From Pseudomonadota bacterium (lineage in GTDB: Bacteria > Chloroflexota > UBA5177), in the NCBI GenBank assembly GCA_021324655.1, contig JAJPIP010000113.1, forward strand, positions 1 through 37,175: 37,175 bases of DNA, given 5' to 3'. The position numbers and the translations under genes were made by a program. Each line of letters begins with the position of its first letter. The stretch's first letter is position 1. The notes beneath the pieces are model-generated. The model had not been told where the DNA came from, ran no database searches, and worked only from the letters and a program-made list of their open reading frames with translations. Positions 23,975-31,624 of the stretch are shown piece after piece.

Positions 23975-24159
23975 ATCACGGACTCGAGCGCGCGGCGTTC
24001 CCTGGGGATTCGGTGTCCACCCGGTCCTCCTCGCCGCCTGGATCTGTCTCGGCCTGGCCTTGCTGCGGCGCTCTGCCTCACACCGGATCATGCAGCCGGG
24101 CTAGCGTGCAGCCTCACCGCTATCCTGCTACCCTGGGAACCAGATCGGAGATAGCGGAC

Positions 24160-24540
24160 ATGTCCAAACTCAAGACGGGGAATCCACGGGTGCAATACCG
24201 CTGCTCGTTCTGTGGCAAGGGACAGGAGGGGGTCCATCGCCTCATTGCCGGGCCCGGCGGCGTCTACATCTGCAATGAGTGTGTTGATCTTTGCAACCAA
24301 ATCTTCGCCGAGGAGTCGAAACCGCCCTCCGTCCATGAACCTCCTCAACAGGCGGCACGGGACGCGGCGGACGACTGGATCAGACGGCGCGCTTTCTCCA
24401 CGGCGCAGCAGGTCGCCGGCTTCCTCTACGCGGGCGACGACTCCTCAGCGCTCGCCTCCACCGAGCGCCTGCTCCTCGATCTCCGCCATCTGCAGGGCCC
24501 GGCACCACCCGAGACGCCGGACGATCCGGGGACAGACTGA
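24160..24540 (+). CDS. Stand-alone ClpX-type zinc finger protein
   Basis: 126 residues from ATG 24160, with GGAG upstream. Residues 12-50 read '[20 protein letters not shown]', then '[17 protein letters not shown]'. Cys15, Cys18, Cys38 and Cys41 form the treble-clef zinc-binding domain (ZBD) of ClpX (zf-C4_ClpX). In ClpX this domain dimerises and recruits substrates and adaptors ahead of the AAA+ module. Here no AAA+ domain follows: after a Pro/Glu linker comes a short helical region, '[20 protein letters not shown]', and '[13 protein letters not shown]'. It may be a regulator or adaptor of ClpXP (inference). Confidence 0.85.
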
Positions 24541-24623: not shown

Positions 24624-25769
24624 ATGACCTCCGTCGCTCGCGTCGTCGCCATCGCGGCCGTTCTTGGGTGTGCGTTCGCCGGCAGCGTCGCACAGGGGGC
24701 GACGGCGCAGCTCACGATCCTCAGCATGACCGTCACCGATACCCAGCACGTCTGGGTCCTCGGCCTCTCCTGCCCGCCGAGTCCCAACCAGTCGTGCTCC
24801 AATCTCGTGGTGCGCGGCAGCCAGGACGGAGGCCTGAGTTGGCCAATTCAGGAGCACGTGCCGGCCGCGCCCAACTTCTTCGGCAAGGGCGTGAGTCACG
24901 CCTACGTGCGCAACCTGCAGTACGCCACACCGCAGGATGCCTACGCCTCCGGTCCCTCTCTGCTCACCAGCCATGACGGCGGCGAGACGTGGACATGGCA
25001 GCGGTCCATCTATTCGGTCGAGGCGCTCGCGCCGGTCGGCAACGAGGTCTGGGCCGTGTCCGATCTCTGCCCTCGGTCCGGCGCCTGTCCCGTCTACCTC
25101 TACCGTAGCCCGGCAAGCGGCGACGCCTGGCATCGCACCACCCTCCCCCTCCGCGCTCCCGCCGGTGCCAGCCAGATCGTGACCGCGGACAACGGACACG
25201 TCTGGATCCTGACCACGCAGGTGACAACGCGCGTGCCGTGGGGCCGGCCCACGCTGATCGAGTCGACCACGTCCGGCCGGAGATGGGTGCGCCGGCCCGA
25301 TCCATGTCCGGTCGGCGAATCCAACATCGATCGCCTCGCCACCGACGACGGAGTCCACCTGTGGCTGGTGTGTGGGGGCCAACCGGCGGCCGGCGGCGAG
25401 CTGATGTCCCTCTACCGCTCGCCCGACGGTGGCCGGCACTGGCGCCTCGTCGCCAGCAATGAGTACATCCTCGCCAAGCACAAGAAGCTCCCCGCCGCCC
25501 GGTTCGTCTACGGCGGCTACGTCGACAGCCTGGCTGTGACCGGCCCGCAGACGGCCTGGTTCTCCCTCGATCGCGGCACCCTGTTCACCACCAGGGATGG
25601 CGGAAAAATCTGGCATCCCGCCACCCGCCAGAACGTCGATCCCGAGGACGCCACCGTCGGCCCCGTCCTGTTTGCCACTCCCTCCGACGGCTGGCTCGCC
25701 TCCTATCCCAACCTGATATTCCGCACGGTCAACGGCGGGAAAGCCTGGCAGCGCATCCCTGTCGGTTAA
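24624..25769 (+). CDS. Secreted Asp-box (BNR) beta-propeller protein
   Basis: About 381 residues from ATG 24624, with AGAGGTGAG upstream; a GTG three codons earlier is possible. The signal peptide is 'VARVVAIAAVLGCAFAGSVA', then 'QGA'. Seven repeats end in an Asp-box-like S/T-x-D/N-x-G-x-x-W: 'SQDGGLSW', 'SHDGGETW', 'SPASGDAW', 'STTSGRRW', 'SPDGGRHW', 'TRDGGKIW', 'TVNGGKAW'. This fits a six- or seven-bladed propeller of the sialidase/YCF48 class. The catalytic residues of sialidases (Arg triad, Tyr/Glu) are not evident, so it is better seen as an exported binding or structural protein than an enzyme. Confidence 0.85.
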   Translation: MTSVARVVAIAAVLGCAFAGSVAQGATAQLTILSMTVTDTQHVWVLGLSCPPSPNQSCSNLVVRGSQDGGLSWPIQEHVPAAPNFFGKGVSHAYVRNLQYATPQDAYASGPSLLTSHDGGETWTWQRSIYSVEALAPVGNEVWAVSDLCPRSGACPVYLYRSPASGDAWHRTTLPLRAPAGASQIVTADNGHVWILTTQVTTRVPWGRPTLIESTTSGRRWVRRPDPCPVGESNIDRLATDDGVHLWLVCGGQPAAGGELMSLYRSPDGGRHWRLVASNEYILAKHKKLPAARFVYGGYVDSLAVTGPQTAWFSLDRGTLFTTRDGGKIWHPATRQNVDPEDATVGPVLFATPSDGWLASYPNLIFRTVNGGKAWQRIPVG

Positions 25770-25781
25770 TGCCTCCGGCCA

Positions 25782-26198
25782 CTAGAGAAGCGTGATGTAC
25801 CTCCCAACCGGGGTATCCCGCAGGGCATTGCCAAGCCGCTCGTCAGCGGTAATGAGCCGGCAGTCTTCGCTCACGGCCAGCGACAGATACAGTGCATCGT
25901 CCAAGGGCCGGTCGTAGGTACAGGCTATAGACAAGGCTCCAGAGAGGAGAAGGCGAGATGGGTACAGGGCGACTGGAAGATCGGAGATAAGCTCTCCGGC
26001 AATCGACTGGATCTCCTCTATCTACAACTCTCGTCGGCTCTTCCATAGAACGTTGGCAACCTCAGCCAGCAACAGATCGGGAGCGATCAGCCGTCGATCA
26101 GTCTCCAACAGAGCGGCGGCTCGGTCGCTCCCCGACTCCGGGATGTACCACTTCACGACAACGCCGGCATCCACAACCAGCGTCCCCTCATCGCTCAC
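25782..26198 (-). pseudogene. PIN-domain (VapC-like) toxin with internal in-frame amber codon
   Basis: From GTG 26198 the frame reads 'LVVDAGVVVKWYIPESGS', 'LIAPDLLLAEVANVLWKSRREL', then TAG at 26022-26024. The same frame continues 'IEEIQSIAGELISDLPVALY', 'YDRPLDDALYLSLAVSEDC', 'RLITADERLGNALRDTP', to TAG 25782. The parts make a full VapC (138 codons) with its acidic residues: Asp10, Glu46, the Asp in 'DDAL' and the Asp in 'TADERL'. A single stop codon splits it. The start overlaps the antitoxin by 11 bp, as expected for an intact pair. Either the toxin is dead by nonsense mutation, or suppression occurs. Confidence 0.8.
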
Positions 26199-26427
26199 GG
26201 TCGGCGCGTATCAACGGAGTGCTGTCCGGGAAGGTCCCGTATTGGCCGGCCAATCGCTGGCGAATAATGCGAGCCCTGTCCGCAGCTGTCTGAGGACTGG
26301 TTTCCTCAGCCACCTCTTCCAGAATCTCCAGCATTTCCTGCTGGAGCGAGCGGTGATGATCTGCCGCGCGGCGCTTTAGCGCCGCCATCACACGCTCCGG
26401 GACATCACGTACCAGTAGATTGGGCAT
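26188..26427 (-). CDS. FitA/VapB-like ribbon-helix-helix antitoxin
   Basis: 79 residues from ATG 26427, with GGAGGTC upstream; the longer frame to 26565 is not supported. 'MPNLLVRDVPERVMAALKRR' is the RHH DNA-binding domain, followed by 'AADHHRSLQQEMLEILEEVA', as in FitA. The C-terminal tail, 'RARIIRQRLAGQYGTFPDS', is the likely toxin-binding segment. Such antitoxins repress their own promoter and neutralise the PIN ribonuclease. The toxin gene starts within the last codons of this gene. The antitoxin appears intact though its toxin is interrupted. Confidence 0.85.
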   Translation of the reverse strand: MPNLLVRDVPERVMAALKRRAADHHRSLQQEMLEILEEVAEETSPQTAADRARIIRQRLAGQYGTFPDSTPLIRADRER

Positions 26428-26591
26428 GACGACCTCCGTGCCAGCAAAACGATAGCAAGTTGCTCCTTTCAGTCCACCCTGGCCCATAACGATATCTTCC
26501 CTGACATTCGTGCCAGGTGGCATCATGACTTGACCGTCAGCATTGCGGTGCCCGCCTCTACGCACTGCGTGACCTGCATCCGGAGATCATC

Positions 26592-29029: not shown

Positions 29030-29063
29030 TGACACGATTAGCTGACACGATGACGGATGTGTC
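29030..29063. promoter_or_regulatory. Direct-repeat cluster upstream of the STAND regulator
   Basis: TGACACGAT occurs at 29030-29038 and again at 29043-29051 (13-bp period), followed by the inverted element GTGTC at 29059-29063. It lies in the 304-bp gap between the divergent secreted-protein gene (start 28905) and the regulator (start 29210), about 70 bp above the predicted -10. Plausible binding sites for a regulator, possibly the XRE protein itself. Confidence 0.45.
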
Positions 29064-29131
29064 GGTTGTCTCCGGATCGAGACTCCCTCCGTCTCCGGTC
29101 TGCCCCCGCCCGCTCGACATCTCGGGGTGTG

Positions 29132-29140
29132 TGCTATCAT
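29132..29140 (+). promoter_or_regulatory. Extended -10 promoter of the STAND regulator gene
   Basis: TGCTATCAT gives an extended -10 (TGn-TATCAT; hexamer 29135-29140). A weak -35, CTCGAC (29113-29118), lies 16 bp upstream. The start codon is 29210. No other gene or structure is evident in the rest of this 304-bp gap. Confidence 0.5.
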
Positions 29141-29209
29141 GCTGGCCAGCCCAATTTGTCAACCCATCCTGGGGGCCCGACGGACGGGAGCGAGGCTGGA
29201 GAGTGCGCG

Positions 29210-31624
29210 ATGGTGAGTGACAGCGAGGCGTCAGCGCCTCTGCGGGCTGCCTCCTTCGGCGACCTCTTGCGCCACTTTCGCCGGCGTGCCGGCTTGACCC
29301 AGGAGGAACTGGCAGAGCGCGCCACTCTCAGCGTCCGTGCCATCAGCGATCTGGAGCGTGGCGCCAAGCAGGGGCCGCACCGCACCACGGTGGAGCTCCT
29401 TGCCTCCGCTCTCGCGCTCTCCGGGGAGGAGCGCAATCAGCTGGAGAGCAGCGCGCGGCGGAAGCGGGGACCATGGCGGGCCGCCGGTTCGGGACGCCGT
29501 CCCTCTCCGCTCCCTGAGCCGCTCACGCCTCTGGTCGGACGCGACCGCGATGTGATCGATGCGGTCCATCGCCTGCGCTGGGGAGGCGTGCGCTTGCTGA
29601 GCCTCACGGGACCCGGCGGCGTGGGCAAGACCCGCGTGGCGATCGCCATCGCGCACGCCCTTCAGGAGGACTGCGCCGGCGGGCCGACGTATGTCTCGCT
29701 CGCGCCCATCCGTGATGCTCGTCTGGTGGCCACCTCGATCGTCGCGTCACTGGGCCTGGAGGACGCACGTGGACACGGCGACGAGGAGATCCTGATTACC
29801 CACCTGCAGGGGCGGGAGTCGATCCTCGTGCTCGATAACTTTGAGCACGTGCTGGAGGCGTCGACATTGGTCGCGCGTCTTCTGCGGGAGTGTCCGCGAC
29901 TCAAGCTCATCGTGACCAGCCGCGTCGCCCTGAAGCTGCAGGGAGAACAGCGGCTGACAATCGCGCCGCTCGAAGTGCCGGCATCCGGCGACCTCGCCGC
30001 TCTGGAGCCGGCTGCCCGCTACCCGGCCATGCAGCTCTTCGTGCAGCGTGCCGGGTCGGTGCGGCACGACTTTGCGCTGACCGACGCCAATCTGGCCACG
30101 GTGGTCGAGATCTGCCGCCGGCTCGACGGCCTGCCGCTGGCCATCGAGCTGGCGGCGGCCCGGGTTGCGCATCTCTCCCCGTCCGCCCTGCTCTTGCGGC
30201 TGAGCGGACGGCTCCTGACGGACGGTCCCACCGATCTACCGGCTCGTCAGCAGACCATGGCCGGCACGATTGCCTGGAGCTACGATCTCCTGCCCGAGTC
30301 CGAGCGGCGCCTGCTGCGGCGGCTTTCCGTCTTCGCCGGCGGCTGGAGCCTGGAGGCGGCGGACGCGATCGCTGGGGAGGACGGCGCCGGCACCCACGCC
30401 CTCTTCGCCGGCTTGAGCCGCCTCGTCGACGCCAGTCTTATCGTCAGCGACGATGGGGCGGAGGACGAGCCGCGCTACCGCATGCTGGAGGTGATTCGGG
30501 AGTATGCCGCGGAACGGCTGACCGAATCGGGCGAAGAGGAGCGGATGCGAGCCGCGCACGCCGCCTTCTTTAGCGAACTGGCGGTGCGGGCGGAGCCGGA
30601 GTTCTGGGGGGTGCGCGAGAAGGCGTGGCTGGCCCGGTTGCAGCGCGACAACGCGAACGTGCGCGTCGCCCTCTCCTGGTACCTGCAGCGGGGAGACGGC
30701 CCGGCCGGACTCCGCCTGGCCGCGGCTCTGGGCATCTTCTGGCACGACAGCGGGCAGCTCACCGAAGGGCGCCACTGGTTTGAGTCGCTCCTGGCGGCGG
30801 ATGCCGGGACCGCGATCGCCGAGCGAGCCAAAGCGCTGGACCGCCTTGGGATGCTGGTCCGTGCCCAGGGTGATTTCGACCACGCCCGGCGCCTCCTCGA
30901 GGAGAGCCTGTGCCTGTACCGTGAGATCGGAGATCAGTGGACAGCGGCCATTGTCCTCACCCACCTGGGCGGACTCGCCGGCATGATGGGCGAGCTCGAG
31001 CGGGCGGAGCAGCTGCTGGCGGAGAGTCTCACCCTGCACCGCCGGCTGGGCAATCGTGGCTATGCGGCGTCTGCGCTGGACCGCCTGGGAGAAGTGCGTC
31101 TGCGGCAAGGGGACCTGGCTCGGGCCCGAGAGCTGCTCGACGAGGCCCACGCCATGCACCAGGAGGTCGGAGATCTCGTCGGAGCGGCCGAGAGTCTGCT
31201 CGCCCTCGGTCGAATTGAGCAGCGCCAAAGGGATCACGCCCGCGCCCGTGCCTTCTATCGCGACGCTCTGACCCTGCTCGGCCGGATCGGCGCCGTGGGC
31301 CGGATGCCCGATGTCGTCGAGGCCCTGGCCACTCTGCTGAGCGACGGCGGGGACGGGTCTCAAGCAGCCCGGCTGTGGGGCGTTTCCGCCGCCATCCGCG
31401 ACGCGATCGGCCGCCCCGCTGCAACCGCTGGTCCGTCCAGACTCGAGCCACCCCCGACAAGCCCTCACACCGGACTGACCGAGGAAGCCTGGCGAGCCGC
31501 CTGGCAGCAGGGATACGCGGTGAGTCTGGAAGACGCCGTCGAGTACGTCCTGGCGGAGAGCGAATGGCAAAGCGAGTCCACCGACGGCCGGCCCCCTAAC
31601 CACCGTTTCTCCCCGCCACTGTAG
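29210..31624 (+). CDS. XRE-HTH / STAND-type NB-ATPase / TPR regulator
   Basis: 804 residues from ATG 29210, with GGAGAG upstream. Residues 16-70 are an XRE helix-turn-helix: 'FRRRAGLTQEELAERATLSV', 'RAISDLERG'. Residues 105-400 are an NB-ARC/AfsR-like ATPase with Walker A GPGGVGKT (134-141), Walker B 'ILVLDNFEHVL' (about 204), 'LKLIVTSRVAL' and 'LDGLPLAIELAAARV'. A winged-helix-like part follows ('LRRLSVFAGGWSLEAA'), then 'YRMLEVIREYAAERL'. From about 540 to 700 there are several TPR-like helices: 'ALDRLGMLVRAQGDFDHARRL', 'ALDRLGEVRLRQGDLARARELL'. This architecture is abundant in Chloroflexota; targets unknown. Its stop codon falls within REP copy C. Confidence 0.92.
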   Translation: MVSDSEASAPLRAASFGDLLRHFRRRAGLTQEELAERATLSVRAISDLERGAKQGPHRTTVELLASALALSGEERNQLESSARRKRGPWRAAGSGRRPSPLPEPLTPLVGRDRDVIDAVHRLRWGGVRLLSLTGPGGVGKTRVAIAIAHALQEDCAGGPTYVSLAPIRDARLVATSIVASLGLEDARGHGDEEILITHLQGRESILVLDNFEHVLEASTLVARLLRECPRLKLIVTSRVALKLQGEQRLTIAPLEVPASGDLAALEPAARYPAMQLFVQRAGSVRHDFALTDANLATVVEICRRLDGLPLAIELAAARVAHLSPSALLLRLSGRLLTDGPTDLPARQQTMAGTIAWSYDLLPESERRLLRRLSVFAGGWSLEAADAIAGEDGAGTHALFAGLSRLVDASLIVSDDGAEDEPRYRMLEVIREYAAERLTESGEEERMRAAHAAFFSELAVRAEPEFWGVREKAWLARLQRDNANVRVALSWYLQRGDGPAGLRLAAALGIFWHDSGQLTEGRHWFESLLAADAGTAIAERAKALDRLGMLVRAQGDFDHARRLLEESLCLYREIGDQWTAAIVLTHLGGLAGMMGELERAEQLLAESLTLHRRLGNRGYAASALDRLGEVRLRQGDLARARELLDEAHAMHQEVGDLVGAAESLLALGRIEQRQRDHARARAFYRDALTLLGRIGAVGRMPDVVEALATLLSDGGDGSQAARLWGVSAAIRDAIGRPAATAGPSRLEPPPTSPHTGLTEEAWRAAWQQGYAVSLEDAVEYVLAESEWQSESTDGRPPNHRFSPPL

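What the first reader, a model, noticed from the sequence alone, without database searches (positions are those of the whole stretch)
25782..26427. Toxin-antitoxin pair with an amber codon in the toxin
The PIN toxin reads cleanly on both sides of TAG 26022-26024, all acidic residues are present across the break, and the antitoxin is intact and overlaps as usual. The single change looks recent. Options are a disarmed toxin kept for the antitoxin's DNA binding, sequencing error, or low-level stop readthrough limiting toxin dose.
Basis: partly seen in the sequence, partly recalled or inferred. Interest (0 to 1): 0.5.

Follow-up and report, generated by a model that had tools for sequence, protein, structure and literature searches.

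The report
VapBC pair with broken toxin gene
This is an ordinary bacterial toxin-antitoxin gene pair whose toxin gene is cut short by a stop codon and so probably makes no working toxin, while the antitoxin and its own control site look intact.

Summary
The observation largely holds. On the minus strand a FitA/VapB-type antitoxin (26427-26191) is followed by a VapC-type PIN toxin frame cut at TAG 26022-26024 (residue 59), which stays in frame to its own terminator, also TAG. The catalytic acidic residues are present if it is read through. The other 11 close hits in 400 genomes have no stop, and the codon lies in a loop where relatives vary.

It may not be a lone change. In 10 of 12 relatives examined an in-frame toxin start lies in an RTGA overlap; here the ATGA is kept but is one base out of frame, leaving an upstream GTG. 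A near-invariant aromatic (residue 100) is also replaced.

Readthrough has little support: RF1 is present, none of 45 tRNAs found reads UAG, and the toxin's own terminator is TAG. Broken PIN genes are usual: 4 of the other 149 listed PIN hits in 31 genomes carry one in-frame stop.

The antitoxin's putative double operator is intact and its pattern occurs once in the genome, which argues against a kept regulator of other genes.

Verdict: an ordinary VapBC pair with a decaying toxin; consensus error or strain variation cannot be excluded.

The parts
26439..26457 (-). Putative operator of the antitoxin: two TGCTRKCR half-sites 11 bases apart; it ends 11 bases before the antitoxin start codon
   Evidence: Single match in the window, 0 in 100 shuffles; single match in the 3.8 Mb genome; double sites of this kind upstream of 7 relatives' antitoxins. 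The pattern was drawn up from these same sequences.
26188..26427 (-). Antitoxin gene, 79 aa, FitA-like ribbon-helix-helix (VapB type), intact, stop TGA
   Evidence: PF22513 E 7.4e-14, 51.9 bits over a cut-off of 27; 62% identical in the nearest relative G001
26188..26191 (-). ATGA: the place where most relatives examined have an in-frame toxin start; here out of the toxin frame by one base
   Evidence: Junctions compared in the window and 12 relatives
26022..26198 (-). N-terminal part of the VapC toxin frame, 58 codons from GTG to the premature TAG; holds D10 and E46
   Evidence: PF01850 24.4 bits on its own; alignment
26022..26024 (-). Premature TAG (residue 59), in the loop between helices 42-56 and 60-72
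   Evidence: Sequence; model with mean pLDDT 95.3; variable column in relatives
25785..26021 (-). C-terminal part of the toxin frame, 79 codons, no further stop; holds D101 and D119
   Evidence: PF01850 47.2 bits when read across with X, 20.8 bits (below cut-off) on its own; alignment
25782..25784 (-). Native terminator of the toxin frame, also TAG
   Evidence: 9 of the 20 aligned relatives whose stop was seen also end in TAG

Best explanation
This is a type II VapBC (FitAB-like) operon in which the PIN-domain toxin gene is a young pseudogene. Translation from GTG 26198, if it starts there, would stop after 58 residues. That fragment holds two of the four acidic residues of the active site and only the first part of the fold, so no active ribonuclease is expected. 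The antitoxin and its putative operator are intact, so the promoter may still be controlled by the antitoxin alone, probably more weakly, since in FitAB the toxin strengthens DNA binding (PMC3920265, passages). Shown: the frames, the stop, the conserved residues, the intact relatives and the start one base out of register. Inferred: loss of activity, autoregulation, and the order of the changes.
For: PIN homology on both sides of the stop. None of the other 11 hits at E <= 1e-15 in 400 genomes of the phylum has a stop inside, and of 42 hits in 61 near genomes only this one has. The usual start is out of frame, unlike 10 of 12 relatives examined. A position that is Y or F in 21 relatives is changed. 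RF1 is present; none of the 45 tRNAs found has a CUA anticodon. Single in-frame stops in PIN genes are usual: 4 of the other 149 listed hits in 31 genomes. Youth: no second stop in 79 codons, and D101 and D119 kept.
Against: dN and dS against G001 give similar ratios before and after the stop (0.24/1.55 and 0.33/1.97, dS saturated), so there is no clear relaxation. The part after the stop is less conserved (50% before, 31% after, against 17 relatives), but so it is in four intact relatives used as controls (ratios 0.68-0.71, window 0.62). Changes after the stop, 7 on the window's branch and 3 on G001's, are not significant (Fisher p 0.35). The lack of a second stop dates the break weakly: 97 neutral changes still give p about 0.05. 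One relative, L084, has only the same GTG start at -11 and an open toxin frame, so the start shift need not be damage. Openness of 79 codons alone is not improbable (p 0.11).
Confidence: 0.74

Rival explanations
1. The TAG (and perhaps the one-base start shift) is a consensus error or a minority strain variant in an assembly that looks like a metagenome bin (my inference); the living population has an intact toxin.
For: The genome is 114 contigs, 95.96% complete, 2.4% contamination; one genome per species is held, so no second copy could be checked. The rest of the frame is open and keeps the active-site residues.
Against: 0 of 63 ABC_tran hits in the same genome carry a stop and 12 of 13 PIN hits are open, so the assembly is not generally broken; this bounds the base error rate only weakly. 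Two oddities in one gene would need two errors if both are errors.
Confidence: 0.19
2. Low-level UAG readthrough by near-cognate tRNAs makes a small dose of full-length toxin, which tunes toxicity.
For: The residue-59 column varies (8 residue kinds in 21 relatives) and lies in a loop of the model, so many inserted residues should be tolerated. TAG readthrough was measured in E. coli, ranking between TGA and TAA, and G-rich, T-poor sequence after the stop raised it (PMC11126739, passages); here the next 15 bases hold 5 G and 2 T.
Against: RF1 present, no UAG-reading tRNA among 45 found, no PylS match, no notable fold, no other hit has the stop, native terminator also TAG, usual start out of frame.
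Confidence: 0.03
3. The toxin was disarmed under selection and the antitoxin kept, either as a regulator of other genes or to neutralise a related toxin.
For: Antitoxin and putative double operator intact. Twelve other PIN hits in the genome are possible partners. Orphan antitoxins beside broken toxins are described (PMC7354431, passage).
Against: The operator pattern is found only here in 3.8 Mb (exact pattern, no mismatches), and this is the only FitA-like antitoxin over the family cut-off (1 of 3 hits), so no second target or matching pair is seen. Intactness also fits a recent break.
Confidence: 0.04

Closest known systems
VapBC / FitAB type II toxin-antitoxin systems (PIN toxin PF01850 with FitA-like RHH antitoxin PF22513)
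   Same: Gene order, overlapping genes, PIN family match with four acidic residues, RHH antitoxin, a putative operator upstream of the antitoxin
   Different: Premature TAG in the toxin; toxin start out of register with the usual RTGA overlap; D in place of the usual aromatic at residue 100
PAE0151 (2fe1), solved protein called 'conserved hypothetical protein' in the listing
   Same: Best solved match to the family profile, E 1.5e-25
   Different: Distant; open frame. That it is a VapC of Pyrobaculum aerophilum is recalled.
Orphan antitoxins beside broken toxins (YacB of Shigella flexneri, ParE of Caulobacter crescentus; PMC7354431, passage)
   Same: Antitoxin kept next to an inactivated toxin gene
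   Different: Other toxin families; for YacB the paper gives a frameshift that causes a premature stop, here a nonsense codon and a start out of register

Membership tests
VapBC / FitAB type II toxin-antitoxin | PIN domain toxin with conserved acidic residues | tested here: met
   PF01850 47.2 bits with the stop as X; D10, E46, D101, D119 present. No NCBIfam model matched the toxin.
VapBC / FitAB type II toxin-antitoxin | Toxin encoded as one uninterrupted frame | tested here: not met
   TAG 26022-26024. It is filed as a broken descendant of the family, not as a working member.
VapBC / FitAB type II toxin-antitoxin | Upstream RHH antitoxin in one operon | tested here: met
   PF22513 51.9 bits, directly upstream, overlapping. 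The one NCBIfam match (VapB_Myco, 21.1 bits) is under its cut-off of 60.
VapBC / FitAB type II toxin-antitoxin | Operator upstream of the antitoxin bound by the pair | tested here: inconclusive
   Double half-site found; binding not testable here
VapBC / FitAB type II toxin-antitoxin | Ribonuclease activity neutralised by the antitoxin | not testable with these tools
   Needs an assay
Programmed UAG readthrough or recoding | UAG-reading tRNA or loss of RF1 | tested here: not met
   RF1 495.5 bits; no CUA anticodon in the 45 tRNAs found; no PylS match. No GAT or TGC anticodon was seen, so the tRNA set is slightly incomplete.
Programmed UAG readthrough or recoding | Stop conserved among relatives | tested here: not met
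   No stop in the other 11 hits or the other 41

The most novel reading that the evidence does not exclude
The amber codon is a dose limiter: rare readthrough yields trace amounts of full-length VapC, held in check by an intact antitoxin acting on its single operator.
Probability: 0.03. Interest if true: 0.5.

Novelty: new member of a known kind. Interest (0 to 1): 0.1.

Why it matters
It matters little by itself: it is one more toxin gene being lost from a toxin-antitoxin pair. Its use is as a warning. A clean downstream frame suggested a single recent change, but comparing the start with relatives showed a second oddity. The double site upstream of this antitoxin subfamily could help to find its operators elsewhere.

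Tried and rejected
Recoding or suppression: looked for RF1, UAG-reading tRNAs, PylS (13 of 14 control genomes matched that model but only 1 passed the cut-off, so the model's weak matches mean little) and an RNA fold. No support. Mobile origin: no phage match; 59 plasmid records match, all under 60% identity. The promoter scan found no sigma-70-like site; two overlapping terminator-like sites lie after the toxin at 25611-25635 on the minus strand, 2 against 0.6 in shuffles. Age of the stop: dN/dS, branch counts, segment identities and stop decay are too weak to date it. Inverted-repeat search upstream of the antitoxin gave nothing useful. Literature: searches for broken toxins with kept antitoxins and readthrough gave only general parallels in what I looked at; this is not a claim that none is in print. 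The half-site TGCTATC as a FitA site is recalled from the Neisseria FitAB work and was not confirmed.

Rows dropped: of the hits I aligned 21 relatives in full; the others were left out, among them 8 aligned only (L045, L048, L049, L050, L051, L061, L091, L094), which also have Y at the residue-100 column. In one search one relative (L044) was read in the wrong orientation, corrected. L046 was left out of the conserved-column count and of alignment A1 (window plus 20 relatives) because its frame was extended wrongly. The start comparison took 13 of the 21; L107 fell out because no antitoxin was found on its contig. The other 8 were not given to it; one search had found no antitoxin, or only very weak matches, upstream of them.

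Full report
What is there. On the minus strand the window carries a two-gene operon. The antitoxin (26427-26191, stop TGA 26190-26188, 79 aa) matches the FitA-like RHH family at 51.9 bits. The toxin frame runs from GTG 26198 to 25785, is interrupted by TAG at 26022-26024 (residue 59), and ends at its own TAG (25784-25782). Read with X at the stop it matches the PIN family over residues 8-122 at 47.2 bits; the parts alone give 24.4 bits (N-terminal) and 20.8 bits (C-terminal, under the cut-off of 23.6). D10, E46 and D119 occur in 21 of 21 aligned relatives and D101 in 20 of 21. An AlphaFold2 model of the read-through frame, with 20 relatives in the alignment, has mean pLDDT 95.3 and puts residue 59 in the loop between helices 42-56 and 60-72. 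The column is free: 8 kinds of residue in 21 relatives. That these four residues are the PIN active site is established knowledge of the family.

Relatives. The nearest are G001 (same family, 61% identity), G096 (54%), two copies in G136 (50 and 52%), G128 (47%) and G032 (47%). Of 12 hits at E <= 1e-15 in 400 genomes of the phylum only the window's has a stop inside; of 42 hits in 61 near genomes only the window's has. In the named collection 17 loci were found, the nearest at 45%.

A second oddity. I compared the antitoxin-toxin junction in the window and 13 relatives, 12 of which have an antitoxin on the contig. In 10 of the 12 an in-frame start lies in an RTGA four-base overlap (three of these 10, all from one genus, have further in-frame starts beside it). 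In the window the ATGA is kept, but the toxin frame is shifted by one base against it, so that from this ATG only a 12-residue peptide would be read (by eye). The only in-frame start upstream of residue 8 is GTG at -11. One relative (L084) has the same arrangement with an open toxin frame, and one (L109) starts 6 bases after the antitoxin stop, so this may be a tolerated start or a second lesion. Residue 100, beside catalytic D101, is Y in 20 and F in 1 of 21 relatives and D in the window. Together these make 'a single recent change' doubtful.

How old. After the stop the frame has no further stop in 79 codons, but only 22 of 711 single substitutions would make one, so about 97 neutral changes are still compatible at p 0.05, and chance openness of 79 codons is 0.11 in this composition. 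Against G001, dN is 0.24 before and 0.33 after the stop, dS 1.55 and 1.97, saturated. Polarised changes after the stop are 7 on the window's branch and 3 on G001's, before it 3 and 4; Fisher p 0.35. The C-terminal part is less conserved than the N-terminal part (31% against 50% over 17 relatives), but this holds in four intact relatives too (ratio of after to before 0.68-0.71; window 0.62). So the break looks young compared with the split from G001, without a firm date.

Readthrough. RF1 is present (495.5 bits, cut-off 423.25). The 45 tRNA genes found have ordinary anticodons and none is CUA; no GAT or TGC anticodon was seen, so the set is not quite complete. PylS gave no match. RNA folding around and after the stop is not unusual (z -0.81). 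The frame's own terminator is also TAG, as in 9 of the 20 aligned relatives whose stop was seen. In E. coli TAG readthrough ranks between TGA and TAA, and G-rich, T-poor sequence after the stop raises readthrough (PMC11126739, passages only); the 15 bases after this stop hold 5 G and 2 T. Trace readthrough is therefore possible, but nothing here points to selection for it.

How usual. In 31 near genomes the PIN family gave 234 matches, of which the best 150 were listed; 5 of these 150, the window's included, hold one in-frame stop (3 TAG, 2 TGA). In the window's genome 1 of 13 PIN hits and 0 of 63 ABC_tran hits hold a stop. Antitoxins left beside broken toxins are described (PMC7354431, passage only). 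In PMC2701414 the authors' answer to a reviewer, as seen in one passage, names PIN proteins as an example of possibly inactivated toxins and says that solo toxins and antitoxins are many.

The operator. Upstream of the antitoxin lies TGCTATCG-TTT-TGCTGGCA (26457-26439). Double sites matching the same pattern, half-sites 11 bases apart, lie upstream of the antitoxin in 7 relatives: on the gene's strand in G001, G096, L110, L111 and L114 (L114 on both strands), on the other strand in G032 and L112. Variants lie in L108, L113 and L083, and L084 has one half-site. It is the only match in 3.8 Mb. The pattern was made from these sequences, so the count in relatives is partly circular. Its single occurrence argues against a kept antitoxin that controls distant genes. 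In FitAB the toxin does not touch DNA but strengthens binding (PMC3920265, passages only), so loss of the toxin would probably weaken repression.

Conclusion. The best reading is a VapBC pair with a recently lost toxin, of low interest. A consensus error or strain variant is the main rival and needs reads.

Noticed in passing
26439-26457 (-): A double TGCTRKCR site upstream of the antitoxin, seen in this antitoxin subfamily and with one match in the genome.
   Followed up: yes
26188-26198 (-): Toxin start shifted by one base against the RTGA overlap usual in the relatives examined; the kept ATGA is out of frame.
   Followed up: yes
24157-24537 (+): Short 127-residue frame with a ClpX-type C4 zinc finger (PF06689, 69.8 bits) and no ATPase domain match.
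   Followed up: no
29057-31624 (+): 855-aa protein with helix-turn-helix, weak AAA and TPR repeats, a likely regulator.
   Followed up: no
G022:C19:29362-29682, G023:C36:28593-28952, G028:C249:1772-2098, G019:C126:108-491: Four other PIN genes with a single in-frame stop (2 TGA, 2 TAG).
   Followed up: no
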